Positions 30,815 to 40,313 of a stretch of 51,265 nt of DNA are shown here, piece after piece. Made by a program: the position numbers and the translations under genes. Position 1 is the first letter of the stretch. Each line of letters opens with the position of its first letter. Source of the stretch: a virus; IMG/VR virus record IMGVR_UViG_3300036900_000099, positions 1 through 51,265 of that record; one strand, 5' to 3'. Under the pieces are notes generated by a model. It was not told the origin of the DNA. It did not search any database and worked only from the letters and a program-made list of their open reading frames with translations.

Positions 30815-31077
30815 TGCCAGCTATTTTAGAAAGATTAGTGTCGCAGCTTCAAGCAAAAGGGAAATCTAAATCAAGTGCATTTGCAATCGCCACTAGCGTA
30901 CTACAAAAATCAGGAGATCTTAAGAAGGGCACTCAGCAAGCGACTGCTAAAGGCGCTAAGCGTGGGGCAATGTCCCCTGGCGAAAGAGCTAAAGACAGAG
31001 CTTCTAAAAGATCCAAACATAAATCAAAAGACTATAAATATAGCTCTAAAACTAATCGAGCAACATTGAAGAAATAA
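30814..31077 (+). CDS. Small basic protein, 87 aa
   Basis: Last gene of the virion operon, TAATG overlap with the previous gene. Very rich in Lys, Ser, Ala and Arg; two short helices (LERLVSQLQAKGKS and SAFAIATSVLQKSG) then a basic tail. The same layout as the 48-aa protein at 5340-5486. DNA- or capsid-associated function is a guess. Confidence 0.75.
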   Translation: MPAILERLVSQLQAKGKSKSSAFAIATSVLQKSGDLKKGTQQATAKGAKRGAMSPGERAKDRASKRSKHKSKDYKYSSKTNRATLKK

Positions 31078-31103
31078 ACACTTCTTAGAATTTAGACATG
31101 AAA

Positions 31104-31140
31104 AAGCCTCCCCCAGAATAAATCTGAGGGAGGCTTCTTT
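31104..31140. terminator. Bidirectional intrinsic terminator between convergent operons
   Basis: Stem AAGCCTCCC / GGGAGGCTT (31104-31112 with 31128-31136) with inner pairs CAGA / TCTG, T-rich tail on plus (CTTTATT) and A-run before it that gives a U-run on minus. It ends the 27-kb virion transcript and stops the replication operon coming from the other side. Confidence 0.9.
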
Positions 31141-31146
31141 ATTAGT

Positions 31147-31239
31147 TCAGGCATCAACTAGCTACTCACGCGAGTAAAGCTTCTAGTTAGATGCCTGACT
31201 CTATTCCCGCTTGAGCGTTGGAGCGCCCACCTAAGCGGG
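31147..31239 (-). other. Large dyad and second hairpin downstream of the replication operon
   Basis: A 15-bp stem with one bulge (31147-31161 with 31183-31198) closes over an inner hairpin TACTC / GAGTA. Next to it CCCGCTT / AAGCGGG (31206-31212 with 31233-31239) encloses a smaller GCG/CGC pairing. Both would be in the 3' end of the minus-strand transcript. There is no gene here. Could be RNA 3'-end structures, a processing site or a protein-bound cruciform. Confidence 0.7.
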
Positions 31240-31244
31240 GTAGG

Positions 31245-31625
31245 TTAAGAATTCAAAGCCTTAACTGTGGCCTTGAAGTCTTGAAGGGCCTTGAGGCCAT
31301 CTTCCTCGGGAAGAGCAAAGATGACATCGATCGTATCCTTCTTGGTTTCGAGCAGAGCTTTTGCAGCCTCCTCGTAACCTTTACGATCTGCGACCTTAGT
31401 CGGTTCACGCCAGATCAGTCCATAAGGACCAGTGCCATAAGCAGTGATCCCATCCTCGTCCGTAGTGGGCAAGGTGAACTCATCAGACTTGATCCGATCA
31501 ACGAGTTCCTTGGCAGATTGAGGAGGATCATTCTCGGTAATGTTAAACTTCCGAGCGAGCGCCTTCTTACCATCAAACCAGGTATCCTCGATACGGTCGC
31601 GCAGGTAACGCTTGGTATCAAACAT
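31245..31625 (-). CDS. Hypothetical early protein, about 126 aa
   Basis: The ATG at 31625 follows AAGGAGAG at good spacing and gives a product starting MFDTKRYLRDRIEDTWFDG. A longer form from ATG 31745 (166 aa, with a Lys/Cys/Pro-rich extension) is possible because that ATG overlaps the upstream stop. Charged, soluble protein, no known domain. Last gene of the minus-strand operon. Confidence 0.75.
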   Translation of the reverse strand: MFDTKRYLRDRIEDTWFDGKKALARKFNITENDPPQSAKELVDRIKSDEFTLPTTDEDGITAYGTGPYGLIWREPTKVADRKGYEEAAKALLETKKDTIDVIFALPEEDGLKALQDFKATVKALNS

Positions 31626-31737
31626 GGGAGTTTTCTCTCCTTCTTCTTTTTGTACAGGTGGGTATTTTGATTTACACACCTTAGGTTTGCAAGGTACAGC
31701 GTTTGATCTCTGTGCCTCATTGATCATTTCAAAGACG

Positions 31738-31881
31738 TCAAACATTGAACGGAGGCTCCGTCTGCTGTCCGACATCCTCTTCCGACTGAACCTCAAAAAC
31801 TTGAGCGAGGGGTTTTACCTCTCCAGTTTCAAGGTCCTTAACGGAGAGAGTTTCTCCGTTCCTTATAGTGGTAAGCTTCAT
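31738..31881 (-). CDS. Small protein with MKLTTI N-terminus, 47 aa
   Basis: ATG after GGAGTAAGCA. Sequence opens MKLTTIRNGETLSVKDLETG, recalling the VKLTV-aromatic-Asn-(Gly/Asp) peptide found at the ends of six other early proteins. The rest is acidic and polar. The stop overlaps the alternative ATG of the downstream gene. Function unknown. Confidence 0.6.
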   Translation of the reverse strand: MKLTTIRNGETLSVKDLETGEVKPLAQVFEVQSEEDVGQQTEPPFNV

Positions 31882-31916
31882 TGCTTACTCCTCTTGTTAG
31901 GGGATTACTCCCCGGT

Positions 31917-32156
31917 TTAACGGCTACCTCTTTTAGGTTGCCGTATTCTATTAGCATGTTTGGATACCACAGCAGTAGGCACTCTGTCAAGAGATCCTGT
32001 GCGATGATATCCTAGATGATCAACCTCTTTGTTATCGCCCTTGTGTACTAAGCCCTTTTTAGCGGCTTTACGTCTGGCTTTATTACGAGCCTCTCGACGT
32101 CTAACTTGTGCGGGCGAGTCTTCGTAACGCGTTTCACGCGGATAGTTATGAACCAT
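31917..32156 (-). CDS. Small HNH-like basic protein, 79 aa
   Basis: Starts MVHNYPRETRYEDSPAQVRR, then a strongly basic helix, then KEVDHLGYHRTGSL and a C-terminal VVSKHANRIRQPKR. The D-H pair and the VVSKHANR end look like a reduced HNH motif of phage proteins often called HNH or structural; the third catalytic position is not obvious. The ATG lies inside the VKLTVY coding segment of the upstream gene (11-base overlap). Confidence 0.75.
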   Translation of the reverse strand: MVHNYPRETRYEDSPAQVRRREARNKARRKAAKKGLVHKGDNKEVDHLGYHRTGSLDRVPTAVVSKHANRIRQPKRGSR

Positions 32157-33131: not shown

Positions 33132-33279
33132 CGTTAATAATAGTCATCACATAAGCTATGTCAGGTTCAGCTGCGTAGTAATCCTCCGGTTTGTTGTGCC
33201 TGACGCACGGATGAATATGTTTACACTCCTGCCACGGGTTCTGGCATTTGCATCGGCCACGTAACATTAGGCAACCCAT
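33061..33279 (-). CDS. Small Cys/His-rich protein, 72 aa
   Basis: Five cysteines and several histidines in the first 30 residues (GRCKCQNPWQECKHIHPC) suggest metal binding. It overlaps the nuclease gene upstream by 59 bases and the endonuclease I gene downstream by 71 bases, in different frames. A similar GRC-x-C ... EC pattern occurs in an overlapping frame at 34731-34907. Start could also be ATG 33267. Confidence 0.55.
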   Translation of the reverse strand: MGCLMLRGRCKCQNPWQECKHIHPCVRHNKPEDYYAAEPDIAYVMTIINDGEVTQFFREVDKPIPDRKEDKL

Positions 33280-34141
33280 TGTAAACTACCCTCCCGTGTT
33301 TGTCTATTTCTTTTACGTTTTTAGGTTCACGTACAACCTTTGTTAAGTAAACTATTTTAGGTTTACTTCTTTCTGCGTAGATGAAGGTTCGGAGATGAGG
33401 ATGGCAGACGTAGCGCATCTCGTCGTAGCTTGCTCTAGTGTCGAGCTTAACGTTTCCACTTGCTTGGAAAGGTTCTGTTCCACAGCCGCAAGCCGGCGGT
33501 TGAGGGAGAGCAACAATCCTTTGATAATCCCTAAGTCTTTTTTCGATGTGATCTGGTCTATGCTTGTGTTCATGTAATGCTAAATGTCCTAGTTCTTTAC
33601 CGATGCCCAATAAGTATCCACGATCTTTTACGGTTGTAAGTGGGTCAAGTGCACTCCCGCTAAGATAAGCGTCAAGCTGATCAAGATAACCAAAGCTGTC
33701 ATCCTGCTCAATGGACCCAGACTTGAGCTTCTCCAAAGCCAAGACGCTAGAAGACTTAACATCGACCAAGCAGCCATCAATAACAGCGTCCCGATGACCC
33801 AGGACACCACAGACTTCCAGTTCATCCTGCTCTCCTGTGACTGTGTGGCCAGCGGCACGTGCTAGTGTCAAGACCAAAGCTTCAAGGATGTGTCCGTACA
33901 TCAGTTTAATGTGGACCCAAGGTGGGAGTGGAGCAGCTAATTCAGGAGTGTGTACACTGTGCCATAAGGCTTTGGGACATCTAGGTCCTAACTTCGACAA
34001 GCGAAGTCCGTTCCGGCGTACCTTTTCAGTGTCTAACCGTTTCGAGATGTCCCTAGCCAACAGTTCGGATAACTTAGGAGTCATCCAATCGGTATTTACA
34101 ATCTTATAGATGTCAGGGATTAGAGTATGAATTGTTTTCAA
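33221..34141 (-). CDS. PD-(D/E)xK exonuclease, RecB/Cas4-like, 306 aa
   Basis: Core nuclease signature GHRDAVIDGCLVDVKSSS (Asp near 123-127, then Asp-x-Lys) preceded by a helix with His/Glu (MYGHILEALVLTLARAAG) and followed by the QLDAYL segment, as in RecB-family and phage-type nucleases. Cys residues near 218-220 (ACGCG) could hold a metal or Fe-S site but are not arranged as in classic Cas4. It stands where T7 has its gp6 exonuclease, just before endonuclease I, so it may do the same work with a different fold. Confidence 0.85.
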   Translation of the reverse strand: MKTIHTLIPDIYKIVNTDWMTPKLSELLARDISKRLDTEKVRRNGLRLSKLGPRCPKALWHSVHTPELAAPLPPWVHIKLMYGHILEALVLTLARAAGHTVTGEQDELEVCGVLGHRDAVIDGCLVDVKSSSVLALEKLKSGSIEQDDSFGYLDQLDAYLSGSALDPLTTVKDRGYLLGIGKELGHLALHEHKHRPDHIEKRLRDYQRIVALPQPPACGCGTEPFQASGNVKLDTRASYDEMRYVCHPHLRTFIYAERSKPKIVYLTKVVREPKNVKEIDKHGRVVYNGLPNVTWPMQMPEPVAGV

Positions 34142-35054: not shown

Positions 35055-36881
35055 CCGTAACCTCCTTACGTTTGAGGACTTTAGCGTGCCTAATGTACAC
35101 GCTACCAATGCCGTTTTACCTTCGACGGTAGACCACCGCTCAGGTTAGTTCCGACACGCTTCTAGACGCTGTATACGCTAATCTGGCGTACCTTGGCGGT
35201 AGCGAGGTAGACTTACTAGGACATTGATTGAGATGAATACCGACTAGAACCGGCTCTATGCAATCTCCGTCTTCGTTTCATTCTACCTTTGGTTACGTTG
35301 CCCGTATAGAAGGGCTTATCTTTCACGTGTTACGACGTACATGGAGTTTTATAGCTCCTGCGATTTTTCTACTAATTCTCCATACTTTCAGATGGTTTCG
35401 GATCTTGTTCCCACCTTCGAGTATTTCAGTTAGTTATCGCAGTACAAGCGCATCACCATCACCAGCCATGTCGTGGCCAGCTATCTTCGACAAGTATAAC
35501 ACGCTACCGGAGCCTTTATCTCAACATTACCTAGTTCATCACTTCGGTACGTTGTTAACGGGGTATACGTGCTTTTGCTTTGGCTTTCCTACTCATCCTG
35601 GTGAGTGTTGATATTAACCAAAGGTTCTTTCAGGGTTTGCTTTCCAATCCATGACGTCACCCATTTGTGAAGCATTTAATTGGAGCGTGTCCTATAGCCG
35701 AGAGTTTGCGTTACCACGGGCAGATCGTTACTTCTGCATCATTTATCTGTTGGTTTCACCCAACCCACCTACGATAGCTTAATCTCACATACGTAAGCCA
35801 GCGTTCAGGCGCTAGGGCCTGGGAGGGTTCGAACCTCCAATACCTTTTACTTACTGGGAGAGCGACATCTTGGTTTTTCCGCCTACCGCGTGTGTCTGCG
35901 AGTAAACCAGTCTCCTGGTCCCAAGATAGCTTCTGGTATGTCTCAGAGTTTGGACGAGCAGTGAAATGGCTTACCCATACTCTTGGGGAATTCAACCCCA
36001 ACCTCTCTGAGTGGACCAATCCCGTGAGGGGCTTTTCGGTCACCGTGACAAATATAAACCTCCGCTCTTTTTGCATCTTAGGTATTCCGTTAAGACGGAA
36101 ACACCGAGGGACACCCTTACTTGTCCGTGCTTGTCTTATTCATTCTGCTTTCAGCAGTAGCGTTGTCTAGATCGTTTTCCCCTGAGTGATTTCACCAATC
36201 CGTCAAGGTAATTTTCAATCTTCCGGTACGCCGCTTTGGTCCAGATACTCACAGAACTTTTATTGCCGATGCTCACTTCCTTGCGGTTGCCATATCAACT
36301 CACTTAGCCTTAAGACTTTGGACATCTATCGGACAGTGTTTGATACATCGTTACGCCACTCCCCGTTCTAGAGGAGGCAGGACTCGAACCTGCAAAGACC
36401 GTGTTACACAGCACAGTCGAGGAAGACTCCCAAGACTCGTGACCAGGGCCACAATGACTAGAGGCATTCACCGCCTTTCACGTCTACCTGGCTTGTCTTT
36501 TGAACACCTGCTGCACGTCCGCTCACTGTTTGCTACAGACTGCCGGAGAGGCAGTCCCAGGCATAAGCCTGTTCTACTCCACGAAAGCGGTTGCTTTTTA
36601 GTCTCCATCGCACCGCACGGGCTACAAGACGGGCGGGATCGCACCCCTTTATTCTCTAGCCGAGCTAGAGTTCTACCTCAGTCACGCTATATGGAGCCGT
36701 CCTGGGACTTAACCATTAGTAGTGAGTTCAGTAGACCAAAGATGAAACCTAAGGCTGTTGCAACAACACTGGACAGCGGGCACCACGCTGAACCGCACGT
36801 ACCGTGACCGTGATCTGTTGCATCTAATACCTAGCGTAAATTTCATCCTTGGGATTGGCTTCACCAAGAAAGCGTGAGTAG
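35055..36881 (-). ncRNA. Candidate large structured non-coding RNA region
   Basis: About 1.8 kb without a credible gene inside an otherwise packed operon. On the minus strand there are many perfect hairpins: GACTGCC/GGCAGTC (36538-36556), TTCCGT/ACGGAA (36085-36100), TCTAGC/GCTAGA (36655-36669), a 7-bp closing stem CTCAGAG/CTCTGAG around 70 nt (35942-36011), and T-arm-like hairpins with TTCGAAC and TTCGAGT loops (35822-35838, 36377-36393). Frames open here give peptides typical of reading through tRNA-like DNA. No complete cloverleaf could be folded by eye. The size, hairpin density and tRNA-like parts recall phage GOLLD or ROOL RNAs; identity is not proved. Confidence 0.5.
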
Positions 36882-37040: not shown

Positions 37041-37297
37041 GTTGCGTTCCTCCTAAAGGTCTCGGGGAGGAAGGAATGTGAGCACAGGGAGGACTCTCCT
37101 CCCTCCCCGCCGTGGTCCTCTTCCTCTTGCGTTAGGTTGAGGCACGGGAACTGTAAAGAAGCGTAACCTGACTGTACCACGTGCGTATAGAGCGCATCCA
37201 GCTATAACTACGCTCCTTTGCCTAGGGCGACTTAGGCTGGCGCCAGCCACCAGGGCCAGTGCATAAAAGCACACAAATACTGCCAGGACTAGTCAGG
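37041..37297 (-). other. Intergenic stretch with hairpins, no supported gene
   Basis: A 73-codon frame (37053-37274) has no ribosome-binding site and an Arg/Pro-rich translation, so I do not call it. The stretch holds a CTGGCGCCAG palindrome and a sequence TTAGGTTGAGGCACGGGAAC (37131-37150) that nearly recurs at 45931-45950, both upstream of structured intergenic DNA. Probably untranslated RNA. Confidence 0.4.
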
Positions 37298-37504
37298 TTA
37301 CTTATACACGGTAAGTTTAACCGTGGTTATCTCTTGACCGGGGTATTCCCCAACGTTGATCGGTCTCATGGCGGTACGACATCGCCATTTGAAAACTTTC
37401 TTTAGACGTTTACCACGTCCTCTCCCTTTACTCACTAACTTCTCAACAAGTACCTTTTCACATAAGAGCACTTGTTTGTAGTAAATCGTTTCTTCGCCAG
37501 CCAT
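37298..37504 (-). CDS. Basic protein ending in VKLTVYK, 68 aa
   Basis: GGAGGTG precedes ATG 37504. Middle is strongly basic (SKGRGRGKRLKKVFKWRCR). The last seven residues are VKLTVYK, one of six copies of this peptide at ends of early proteins. No domain recognised; nucleic-acid binding is plausible from charge. Confidence 0.75.
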   Translation of the reverse strand: MAGEETIYYKQVLLCEKVLVEKLVSKGRGRGKRLKKVFKWRCRTAMRPINVGEYPGQEITTVKLTVYK

Positions 37505-38351: not shown

Positions 38352-40313
38352 TTAATGAGTTTGTTTCCAATTGGTGCCTATTGTATAGTCCTGACGATCA
38401 TCGTCATAATAGCTTCCTGCTAACGGACAATTAAGTTTTAACATAACACCAACGTCTTGTAAAGCTTTATCTTGAGCTTTAGCGATAATTAATGCCTCGT
38501 CCATGAAGTTGTTGCATTCGGTTTGCCATTCATCATGAACGAGGTTCACCAGTAACCAACAGTCTTTACCTAACTCTGCTTCTAGATATTGTATCCAAAG
38601 CAGAGTTGCCATTTTCATAACTATAGCTTCACCACTCTGAAGATAACCGGACATGGCCAGATGGCTCCGGTCTCGAACAGTGTTTCCAGGGATCCCAATT
38701 TTTCTACCATCAAGTCCATAGAACCAGCCTCGTTTGGCATCGGCCGGTATTGTAGTAGACTTAAGAGTTGCGAACCCTTGGTATCTGTCCATAATGTTTT
38801 GAAGAGCGGCATCCGCTTGTTCTGGTGTACATTCAAGTATTTCGGCAAGTTTACCAGCTCCCGCTCCCAGTAACAAGGCAAAAATGTACCGCTTAGCCGC
38901 AGCACGGGACTTACAAACCTTACCGAGGATGGACTGGTTGAGAGAATGTGGGTCACTTTTATCCTCCTTCTTCCCTTCGATAAGAGCTTTAGTAAAGGCT
39001 GGCTCGTTGATGTAATGGGCGAAGATACGCAGCTGGATTGCTGCGGCATCTACACCAACGAGCAGCCTTTTCTTAGGGGCAATAAACAGTGACCGCATTT
39101 CGGAGCCAAGATACTTAACTCTTCCTTGAGTATCAAGGTGGTTAGGTATGTTAGCCATGTTAGGCTTCTGGTGAGCCATGCGATGGGTCCAGGCGCCAAT
39201 ACCTATGAACTGAGCGTGGATACGTTTATCATCCGAGATAAGTTTGGTCCACTCCGTTAAGGTACGGCGCCTAGCTTCTACTAGAATTCTCCGAGCGAGA
39301 GTTCTAGCTGCCTCAGGGGCAGTTTTGGGTAAGGTCTGTAGGTTATTTTCATTAACCTTCCAGCCATATTTCTTGAAATGTTGTTGTCTAAGCCTTAGAG
39401 GTTCTATGGTAAGCGGGTCTGCCTTTTCACGTACTAGGCGGGTTACCTCTCTGTCTGTTAAGATGGAGGTTTTAGTACGATCTTCAGGCTGCCAACCCGC
39501 TGACCATAAAAGGTCTACAACTTGTTTGATGGATGCGGGATTAAACTTAATCCATTCACCGTGGTCTACTGGAACTCCGGCAGTGAGCTCATGAGTCCTG
39601 CTACGCCAAACTTTCGGAATTGAGTTTTGCGCGATAGTTCTGAACTTTGTAGCTTTTGGGGTAAAGGTGTAGATATGTTTCCAAACCGAAGGAAACTTGT
39701 TGATCTGTTCATCGAGTATTTCCAATTCTTTAGTTACTTTATCCAACAGTTTATTAGCTTTGTCAAGATCAAATGCAAAGCCATTATCGTGCATCGCATT
39801 GACCGCTAACCATTGGAACTGATGTTCGGTGAGTATTGCCTGCTGCCACTTGCGGTCTTCAACCACCTTGCGGTACTTGCGGTATATCTTCTCAGATATT
39901 TCCACATCACGCAAGCAATACGTCACCATCTCTTCGCTCAGCTTTGAGAAATCAGAGAACTCTAACTTTTCAAAGCCGAACTCTTTGCCATAGTCTTCGA
40001 TACTATGGCCACCTTCTCTCGGATAGTCTACTAGTTTTGAGAGAATGTATGTATCAATTGTACGGTCTGCGATATTGTTGCAATCAACGTTAAGCAAGCG
40101 CCTAAGATGAGTAAAGTCCCAACCAAGTACATTGTGGCCAATATAAATAGGTCTTTGATCCCAGACGGCTTTGAACCGAGCAACCTCGTCCACATCCTCA
40201 GTAAGATTGCGATAAACATCGACGACTCCTGTGTCCAGGTTCTTCGTTACGATACACCAAATCTTCGTAGGATTATGTAGAGAGTTTGCCTCAACGTCAA
40301 TTACTAATTTCAA
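38352..40313 (-). CDS. T7-type family A DNA polymerase, 653 aa
   Basis: Replicative polymerase with 3'-5' proofreading. Exonuclease: VIDVEANSL (residues 4-12, Asp and Glu metal ligands) and YCLRDVEIS near 127. Polymerase: motif A LLVGVDAAAIQLRIFAHY, motif B KRYIFALLLGAGAGKL, motif C LVNLVHDEWQ with the catalytic His-Asp. Slightly shorter than T7 gp5 (704 aa). Starts with TTG, overlapping the stop of the 27-aa gene (ATTGA), which suggests coupled translation. Confidence 0.95.
   Translation of the reverse strand: MKLVIDVEANSLHNPTKIWCIVTKNLDTGVVDVYRNLTEDVDEVARFKAVWDQRPIYIGHNVLGWDFTHLRRLLNVDCNNIADRTIDTYILSKLVDYPREGGHSIEDYGKEFGFEKLEFSDFSKLSEEMVTYCLRDVEISEKIYRKYRKVVEDRKWQQAILTEHQFQWLAVNAMHDNGFAFDLDKANKLLDKVTKELEILDEQINKFPSVWKHIYTFTPKATKFRTIAQNSIPKVWRSRTHELTAGVPVDHGEWIKFNPASIKQVVDLLWSAGWQPEDRTKTSILTDREVTRLVREKADPLTIEPLRLRQQHFKKYGWKVNENNLQTLPKTAPEAARTLARRILVEARRRTLTEWTKLISDDKRIHAQFIGIGAWTHRMAHQKPNMANIPNHLDTQGRVKYLGSEMRSLFIAPKKRLLVGVDAAAIQLRIFAHYINEPAFTKALIEGKKEDKSDPHSLNQSILGKVCKSRAAAKRYIFALLLGAGAGKLAEILECTPEQADAALQNIMDRYQGFATLKSTTIPADAKRGWFYGLDGRKIGIPGNTVRDRSHLAMSGYLQSGEAIVMKMATLLWIQYLEAELGKDCWLLVNLVHDEWQTECNNFMDEALIIAKAQDKALQDVGVMLKLNCPLAGSYYDDDRQDYTIGTNWKQTH

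What the first reader, a model, noticed from the sequence alone, without database searches (positions are those of the whole stretch)
35055..36881. A 1.8-kb structured non-coding region inside the replication arm
Gene density is otherwise near total, yet about 1.8 kb has no convincing coding gene while the minus strand is crowded with perfect hairpins, nested stems and GNRA-like or T-loop ends. Its size and tRNA-like parts recall the giant phage RNAs GOLLD and ROOL, which are found near tRNA genes. Seen: hairpins and lack of genes. Known: such RNAs exist in phages. Inferred: this is one, or a new class.
Basis: partly seen in the sequence, partly recalled or inferred. Interest (0 to 1): 0.8.

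Follow-up and report, generated by a model that had tools for sequence, protein, structure and literature searches.

The report
Giant phage RNA with sealed tRNA
A whole family of uncultured T7-like phages carries, among its DNA-replication genes, a 1-2 kb gene-free stretch that sequence comparison shows to encode a large folded RNA of a type not in Rfam, containing tRNA-shaped pieces whose amino-acid end is sealed into a loop, and it sits beside a gene for a small membrane-type protein, which hints that the two may work together.

Summary
The 1.8-kb minus-strand region 36881-35055 encodes no conserved protein and matches no Rfam family, but it is a real structured RNA. I found syntenic relatives in about 70 IMG/VR phage contigs. 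In all 54 with both flanking genes, DNA polymerase and Cas4-like exonuclease lie 2.2-5.8 kb apart with a long ORF-poor stretch between; in the 5 measurable outgroup phages they lie 0.8-1.2 kb apart. Sequence drifts fast but hairpin modules recur with changed stems. The clearest is a circularly permuted tRNA-Leu-like elbow: T-arm, short hairpin sealing the acceptor end, then D-arm. A covariance model built without the window finds it at 36393-36336 (E 6e-6). The RNA strands hold 73 perfect T-arms, against 0.8 in shuffles. Next to the RNA, 44 of 54 in-group phages (0 of 5 outgroup) encode a small Lys-rich protein with one hydrophobic segment, reminiscent of OLE RNA and OapA. Best model: a large RNA scaffold displaying tRNA-elbow mimics, perhaps membrane-tethered. 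Expression and function are untested.

The parts
35055..36881 (-). large structured non-coding RNA region
   Evidence: no conserved ORF; homologous region in L002 with covarying helices; syntenic in about 70 phage contigs
36336..36393 (-). sealed, circularly permuted tRNA-Leu-like elbow module: T-arm 36393-36377, capped acceptor-like hairpin 36376-36359, D-arm-like 36358-36336
   Evidence: held-out hit of covariance model R1, 30.9 bits, E 6e-6; T-stem, cap stem and D-stem covary across phages
36397..36418 (-). hairpin in the place of a class-II variable arm (GACTGTG-CTGTGTAA-CACGGTC)
   Evidence: local fold; same position and similar loop in L050
36306..36437 (-). tentative outer, anticodon-stem-like closing helix 36437-36428 with 36315-36306
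   Evidence: single-sequence fold only; outer stems are supported for the set of phages but not individually for the window
35822..35838 (-). second T-arm hairpin GGAGG-TTCGAAC-CCTCC
   Evidence: L002 has GTAGG/CCTAC at the same place
35983..36001 (-). T-loop-like hairpin TTGGGG-TTGAATT-CCCCAA
   Evidence: perfect stem read from the sequence and listed; not conserved in L002
36587..36616 (-). hairpin displaying GGAGACUAAAA (family consensus GGAGGCUAAAA)
   Evidence: 16 loci with mostly different stems; mean stem 4.94 bp against 3.41 in shuffles, maximum 4.19 of 200
36538..36556 (-). recurring hairpin with loop CUCUCCG
   Evidence: same 7-nt loop in 9 gap loci with 9 different stems; highest recurrence in shuffles 4
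35174..35190 (-). recurring hairpin with loop CAGAUUA (UACGC/GCGUA stem)
   Evidence: 7 gap loci, 4 stems; present in L002
34138..34440 (-). 100-aa Lys-rich protein with one C-terminal hydrophobic segment; candidate partner of the RNA
   Evidence: 44 of 54 in-group loci, 0 of 5 outgroup, 1 of 993 control ORFs pass the same filter; AlphaFold2: one long helix 23-99, mean pLDDT 85
37163..37302 (-). 139-nt ultraconserved structured element, possibly the 5' part of the RNA
   Evidence: 95.5% identity over 111 nt to L002 where the adjoining DNA is about 70% identical; fold z -2.6
33221..34141 (-). Cas4-domain exonuclease, downstream syntenic marker
   Evidence: PHROG 1990, E 2e-18
38352..40313 (-). 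DNA polymerase, upstream syntenic marker
   Evidence: PHROG 17, E 3.8e-96

Best explanation
The region encodes a large (about 1.8 kb) structured non-coding RNA, transcribed in the direction of the replication genes, and a member of a lineage-wide but fast-evolving RNA family absent from Rfam. Its recurring domains are small hairpins and a sealed tRNA module: a tRNA-Leu-like fold permuted so that the T-arm comes first, the acceptor stem is closed by a hairpin instead of ending in CCA, the D-arm follows, and the anticodon stem is replaced by the helix that joins the module to the rest. Because the acceptor is sealed and the anticodon loop is gone, it cannot serve in translation. Most likely it works as a structural RNA scaffold that shows tRNA-elbow shapes, and perhaps the GGAGG loop, to host tRNA- or ribosome-binding factors during early or middle infection, possibly tethered to the membrane by the adjacent small Lys-rich protein. 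Shown here: conserved place, absence of coding, covariation, module, co-occurrence with the small protein. Inferred: transcription as one RNA, tertiary elbow, binding partners, function.
For: Synteny in one well-supported clade (support 100) and absence in outgroup phages. 73 perfect T-arms on the RNA strand against 0.8 in shuffles. 64 of 85 GGTTCRANNCC loops have three further T-stem pairs, null 9.7, maximum 18. Module pair counts: 95% of cells paired, covariation score 0.594 against 0.171; 0.535 against 0.167 with 27 sequences. Held-out window hit, E 6e-6. Outer stems at set level: mean score 14.35 against 9.9, highest shuffle 12.19. Window/L002: 70 pairs changed on both sides against 42.8 +- 6.2 in column shuffles, pol CDS 34 against 24.7 +- 3.6; L006-L008: 55 against 15.5 +- 4.6. 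Recurring 7-nt loops. No Rfam match. Neighbouring membrane-type protein.
Against: No expression data. Local MFE z-scores are ordinary, and alignment-energy z-scores are as strong in the polymerase gene, so energy does not separate the region from coding DNA. Antisense folding of the window/L002 alignment also shows many two-sided changes (75 against 39.0 +- 6.1), so strand is not resolved by that test. The strict module is detected in only 25 of 54 in-group loci at E<0.01. The window's own D-arm part is divergent and its outer stem is not significant alone. Function rests on analogy.
Confidence: 0.7

Rival explanations
1. A divergent member of a known giant phage RNA class, ROOL or GOLLD.
For: Similar size range, phage location, tRNA association of those classes (PMC12286853).
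Against: No Rfam match at gathering score in the window or relatives, and none to these models at E<=10 in the region. The permuted T-arm/cap/D-arm module is not mentioned for them in the text searched.
Confidence: 0.05
2. A decayed tRNA gene array, or tRNA fragments left by recombination, without function as a large RNA.
For: T-arms and D-arms look tRNA-Leu-derived; some relatives carry normal tRNA-Leu or tRNA-Ile genes elsewhere.
Against: Stems keep pairing through two-sided changes. The sealed, permuted order recurs across the clade. Non-tRNA hairpins recur as well. Region kept in all 54 complete in-group loci.
Confidence: 0.04
3. Permuted tRNA genes that mature into working tRNAs, like two-piece tmRNA or algal permuted tRNAs.
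For: Same order of parts: T-arm, acceptor 3' strand, intervening loop, acceptor 5' strand, D-arm.
Against: Intervening loops are tiny (GAAA, GAGCA) or the acceptor is missing, with no encoded CCA at the right place; anticodon loop replaced by an outer helix.
Confidence: 0.04
4. A DNA-level element such as a replication origin or packaging site, or undetected small genes.
For: It lies among replication genes; antisense folding is also above null.
Against: tRNA-like loops all point in the direction of transcription, no conserved ORF, length 1-2 kb with many independent modules.
Confidence: 0.04
5. The small Lys-rich membrane-type protein has nothing to do with the RNA; both are simply markers of this phage lineage.
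For: One gain of both on the same branch is enough to give the co-occurrence.
Against: Strict adjacency through very deep divergence of the clade; OLE RNA offers a precedent (PMC12054373).
Confidence: 0.5

Closest known systems
ROOL and GOLLD RNAs (Rfam; PMC12286853)
   Same: Large structured RNAs of phages, no known protein role, associated with tRNAs.
   Different: No sequence or structure match in Rfam scans. This RNA is about 1.8 kb against about 0.6-0.8 kb, carries tRNA-like modules inside, and has no tRNA gene in the window.
OLE RNA with OapA (PMC12054373)
   Same: Large ornate RNA next to a gene for a transmembrane protein; OLE also contains a mimic of the SD/anti-SD structure.
   Different: Found in Bacillota, not phage; no Rfam match; OapA is a 21-kDa protein, whereas the protein here has about 100 residues with one hydrophobic segment, and binding is untested.
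tRNA-Leu (class II)
   Same: T-arm, D-arm of the type TGGCGAAATGGTAGACGC, room for a variable arm.
   Different: Circularly permuted, acceptor sealed or missing, no anticodon loop; not detected by ARAGORN or the Rfam tRNA model in the window.
Two-piece (permuted) tmRNA and permuted tRNA genes
   Same: Order T-arm, acceptor 3' strand, acceptor 5' strand, D-arm.
   Different: No processable CCA-bearing intervening segment, no tag reading frame identified, several T-arms per RNA.
Sealed T-arm/cap/D-arm units in other viral contigs and bacterial contigs (L097, L105, L125, L134, L138)
   Same: Same module, model R1 E 1e-13 to 1e-9, often in ORF-poor stretches.
   Different: Different phages or elements, in some cases next to tRNA arrays; relation to this RNA unresolved.

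Membership tests
ROOL | match to the Rfam covariance model | tested here: not met
   window at gathering score, region at E<=10, 18 relatives: no match
ROOL | forms a homo-oligomeric RNA cage | not testable with these tools
   needs cryo-EM
GOLLD | match to the Rfam model, conserved 3' domain | tested here: not met
GOLLD | lies by a tRNA gene or island | tested here: not met
   ARAGORN and Rfam: no tRNA gene in the window
OLE RNA | match to the Rfam model | tested here: not met
OLE RNA | neighbouring membrane protein that binds the RNA | tested here: inconclusive
   a small membrane-type protein is adjacent; binding not testable here; Pfam and PHROGs give no accepted family
tRNA gene | ordinary cloverleaf with open acceptor and anticodon | tested here: not met
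   ARAGORN none in the window, Rfam tRNA none
tRNA-like elbow | T-arm and D-arm that covary and lie in one unit | tested here: met
tRNA-like elbow | T-loop/D-loop tertiary contact | not testable with these tools
   needs probing or a structure
two-piece tmRNA | Rfam tmRNA match, tag frame, CCA end | tested here: not met
   no Rfam tmRNA match; ARAGORN default run reports no tmRNA gene
structured non-coding RNA | base-pair covariation above controls | tested here: met

The most novel reading that the evidence does not exclude
The phages of this clade build a membrane-tethered RNA particle that carries several sealed tRNA elbows and a Shine-Dalgarno-like loop, and use it to capture host tRNA-handling or ribosome-associated factors, or nucleases that attack tRNA; the same sealed module serves other mobile elements.
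Probability: 0.2. Interest if true: 0.92.

Novelty: new variant of a known kind. Interest (0 to 1): 0.78.

Why it matters
Very few RNA classes of this size are known in bacteria and phages, and the function of most is open. This one is found throughout the sampled clade, is at the upper end of the known size range, has a recognisable building block that suggests what it imitates, and has a candidate protein partner, so partner and function can be tested directly. A sealed, permuted tRNA fold used as an RNA domain was not found in Rfam or in the papers searched.

Tried and rejected
Protein coding: PHROG scan of the internal ORFs empty. Rfam in all modes. Local MFE z-scores: uninformative. Alignment-energy z-scores: rejected as evidence because the polymerase gene scores as high. 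Relaxed ARAGORN runs gave only low-scoring, mutually overlapping hits, many with no identifiable amino acid. DNA search of 50,697 phage records for the RNA: no match. One viral scan was wasted on a mistyped pattern. Sigma-70-type promoters: no excess, 4 against 3.8. The hits of model R1 near tRNA-Leu genes upstream of pol in L004, L039, L072, L074 and L078 are the D- and T-arms of ordinary tRNA genes, so they were not counted as modules. Literature searches for permuted tRNA in phages or a tRNA-like ornate RNA gave nothing matching.

Full report
WHAT WAS CLAIMED AND WHAT IS THERE. The window is a 51,265-base viral record of a T7-like phage: terminase, connector and tail genes on the plus strand; primase-helicase, DNA polymerase, an ssDNA-binding protein, Cas4-like exonuclease and endonuclease on the minus strand. 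Between the ssDNA-binding protein and the exonuclease lies the reported stretch. It has no convincing gene: the largest ORFs have no PHROG match, and no ORF of that size is listed in the homologous part of the nearest relative. On the minus strand it is bounded by two short ORFs that each follow a Shine-Dalgarno-like sequence.

Rfam finds nothing at its thresholds anywhere in the window, and no large-RNA family in the region at E<=10 apart from a chance-level archaeal RNase P fragment. ARAGORN finds no tRNA in the window. The general impression of 'crowded hairpins' is not above chance by folding energy, but two T-arm hairpins of textbook form are: 2 observed against 0.018 in shuffles.

RELATIVES. 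The polymerase recovered 7 close relatives and, as an alignment, 80 loci in IMG/VR. In 54 non-redundant loci of the in-group that hold both genes, polymerase and exonuclease are separated by 2,178-5,809 bases (median 2,966) with a long ORF-poor gap; in 5 outgroup loci the distance is 760-1,166. The outgroup phages form one side of a branch with full support, so one origin explains the pattern. The closest relative, L002, has the same region at 66-83% identity in blocks with many indels, while most in-group gaps share little or no alignable DNA. The RNA therefore evolves fast in sequence.

MODULES. Despite that, the gaps share hairpins. The strongest is the T-arm: 73 perfect 5-bp T-arms with TTCRANN loops on the RNA strand of 59 gaps, 0 on the other strand, 0.8 +- 0.8 in shuffles. 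Of 85 GGTTCRANNCC loops, 64 continue with three further base pairs, against 9.7 (maximum 18 of 1000) when partners are dealt out at random, with 24 different 5' triplets: this is covariation without any alignment.

In many RNAs the T-arm is followed by a short hairpin, often closed by GAAA or a similar loop, and then by a tRNA-Leu-type D-arm, TGGYGAAA..GGYARACRC. Read as a tRNA, this is a circular permutation: T-arm, acceptor 3' strand, closed loop, acceptor 5' strand, positions 8-9, D-arm. Before the T-arm there is often a hairpin in the place of a class-II variable arm, and an outer helix in the place of the anticodon stem closes the unit, for example GGTTCTCGT/ACGAGAACC in L041 or CACTGACA/TGTCAGTG in L083. 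For 24 modules together the outer stem is stronger than in shuffled flanks (14.35 against 9.9; highest of 300 sets 12.19), though not for each module alone, and not for the window's.

A covariance model of T-arm, cap and D-arm was built from 12 phages without the window or L002. Pair counts: 95.3% of cells paired (shuffles 73.9), covariation 0.594 (0.171), and a collapse when partners are slid by 1-3 columns. Searching 1.2 Mb, it finds the held-out window at 36393-36336 minus (E 6e-6) and L002 (E 0.008), and nearly all its 94 hits are on the RNA strand. Some hits upstream of the polymerase are ordinary tRNA-Leu arms and are not counted. With 27 matches the counts hold (that alignment is fitted to the model and includes a few such tRNA hits). 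At E<0.01 the module lies between the two genes in 25 of 54 in-group loci; the others may have lost it, diverged, or lie beyond this small model.

Other hairpins recur with the same loop and different stems: CUCAUUA in 15 loci, GUCCAAA 10, CUCUCCG 9, CUGUCUA 8, CAGAUUA 7, where no loop recurs more than 4 times in shuffles. A larger loop, GGAGGCUAAAA, is closed by mostly different stems in 16 loci, mean 4.94 bp against 3.41. The window has the T-arms, the CUCUCCG, CAGAUUA and GUCCAAA loops and GGAGACUAAAA.

DIRECT TEST IN THE WINDOW. Window against L002: RNAalifold pairs with changes on both sides number 70 against 42.8 +- 6.2 in column shuffles; the polymerase gene gives 34 against 24.7 +- 3.6. 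Examples: UCCGU/ACGGA to CUCAU/AUGAG (36099-36086), CUGCGAU/AUCGCAG to CCACCCC/GGUGUGG (35442-35358). For L006-L008 the count is 55 against 15.5 +- 4.6. Two limits: the energy z-score is as strong in the coding control, so it was discarded, and the opposite strand of the window alignment also gives many two-sided changes, so strand is assigned from the tRNA-like loops and gene direction, not from this test.

THE NEIGHBOUR. Between the RNA and the exonuclease nearly every in-group phage encodes a protein of about 90-120 residues, with a Lys/Glu-rich stretch and one hydrophobic segment near the C-terminus. A fixed filter finds it in 44 of 54 in-group loci, 0 of 5 outgroup loci and 1 of 993 control ORFs; by eye several of the ten misses have it too. 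No Pfam or PHROG family reaches acceptance, and AlphaFold2 gives a single long helix (mean pLDDT 85, pTM 0.40). OLE RNA was linked to its transmembrane partner OapA in the same way, by neighbouring genes, and OapA is needed for the membrane location of OLE (PMC12054373). That is a precedent, not a proof: both traits could be markers of one lineage.

HOW IT MOST LIKELY WORKS. The acceptor end is sealed or missing and the anticodon loop is replaced by a joining helix, so these units cannot be charged or decode. What remains of a tRNA is the elbow, the part used by the ribosome and several tRNA-binding RNAs and enzymes (reviewed in PMC4810234, abstract seen). I therefore favour a scaffold RNA that displays elbow mimics, either for its own architecture or to bind host factors. 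My estimates: structured RNA 0.93; sealed permuted elbow in the window 0.85; function through host tRNA or ribosome factors 0.3; membrane tether by the small protein 0.35.

BEYOND THE CLADE. Part overlap ARAGORN tRNAs, but most do not, and several unrelated phages, Flavobacteriales and Planctomycetota contigs carry it in ORF-poor stretches of 0.6-2 kb, with R1 E-values down to 1e-13 (the pattern selects for such matches). In L125, L134 and L138 units appear chained. Whether these belong to one RNA family is open.

VERDICT. A real, large, structured phage RNA family absent from Rfam, not found in the papers searched, with a building block not seen in the known large RNAs. I file it as a new variant of a known kind (large ornate phage RNAs), since neither expression nor function is shown.

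Noticed in passing
window 37302-37163 (-): 139-nt element closed by GTAACCTGACT/AGTCAGGTTAC; 95.5% identical to L002 over 111 nt while the adjoining DNA is about 70% identical; possibly the 5' domain of the RNA or a separate RNA.
   Followed up: partly
window 37040-36882 (-): 52-aa ORF after a Shine-Dalgarno-like sequence between the 139-nt element and the long RNA; no homologue found in the relatives; in L002 the two RNA parts are contiguous.
   Followed up: partly
window 34912-34441: About 470 bases absent from L002, with what look like two diverged copies of a short segment.
   Followed up: no
window 31000-32000 (-): Strongest minus-strand folding signal of the window (mean 150-nt z -3.5), where plus- and minus-strand genes converge.
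   Followed up: no
L125 6256-6369 (-), L134 6321-6544 (-), L138 6106-6387 (+): Bacterial (Bacteroidota) contigs with chained tRNA-like units whose acceptor stems are sealed hairpins; L138 lies by a tRNA array and a Flavo-1 RNA.
   Followed up: partly
L128 5501-6129 (-): Planctomycetota contig with a sealed module and four T-arms in a 1.26-kb ORF-poor stretch.
   Followed up: no
L093 620-660 and 2924-2993 (+): Viral contig with a sealed module and, 2.3 kb on, a type-P3 twister ribozyme.
   Followed up: no
L004 3665-3750, L072 1146-1222, L074 1014-1099, L078 57-143 (+): Ordinary tRNA-Leu(TAA) genes in several relatives; their D-arm is nearly the D-arm of the sealed module, a possible ancestor.
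   Followed up: partly
L060, L041, L023 (sealed modules): The sequence AGTATCCTAGAA recurs in the cap or variable-arm hairpin of different modules.
   Followed up: no
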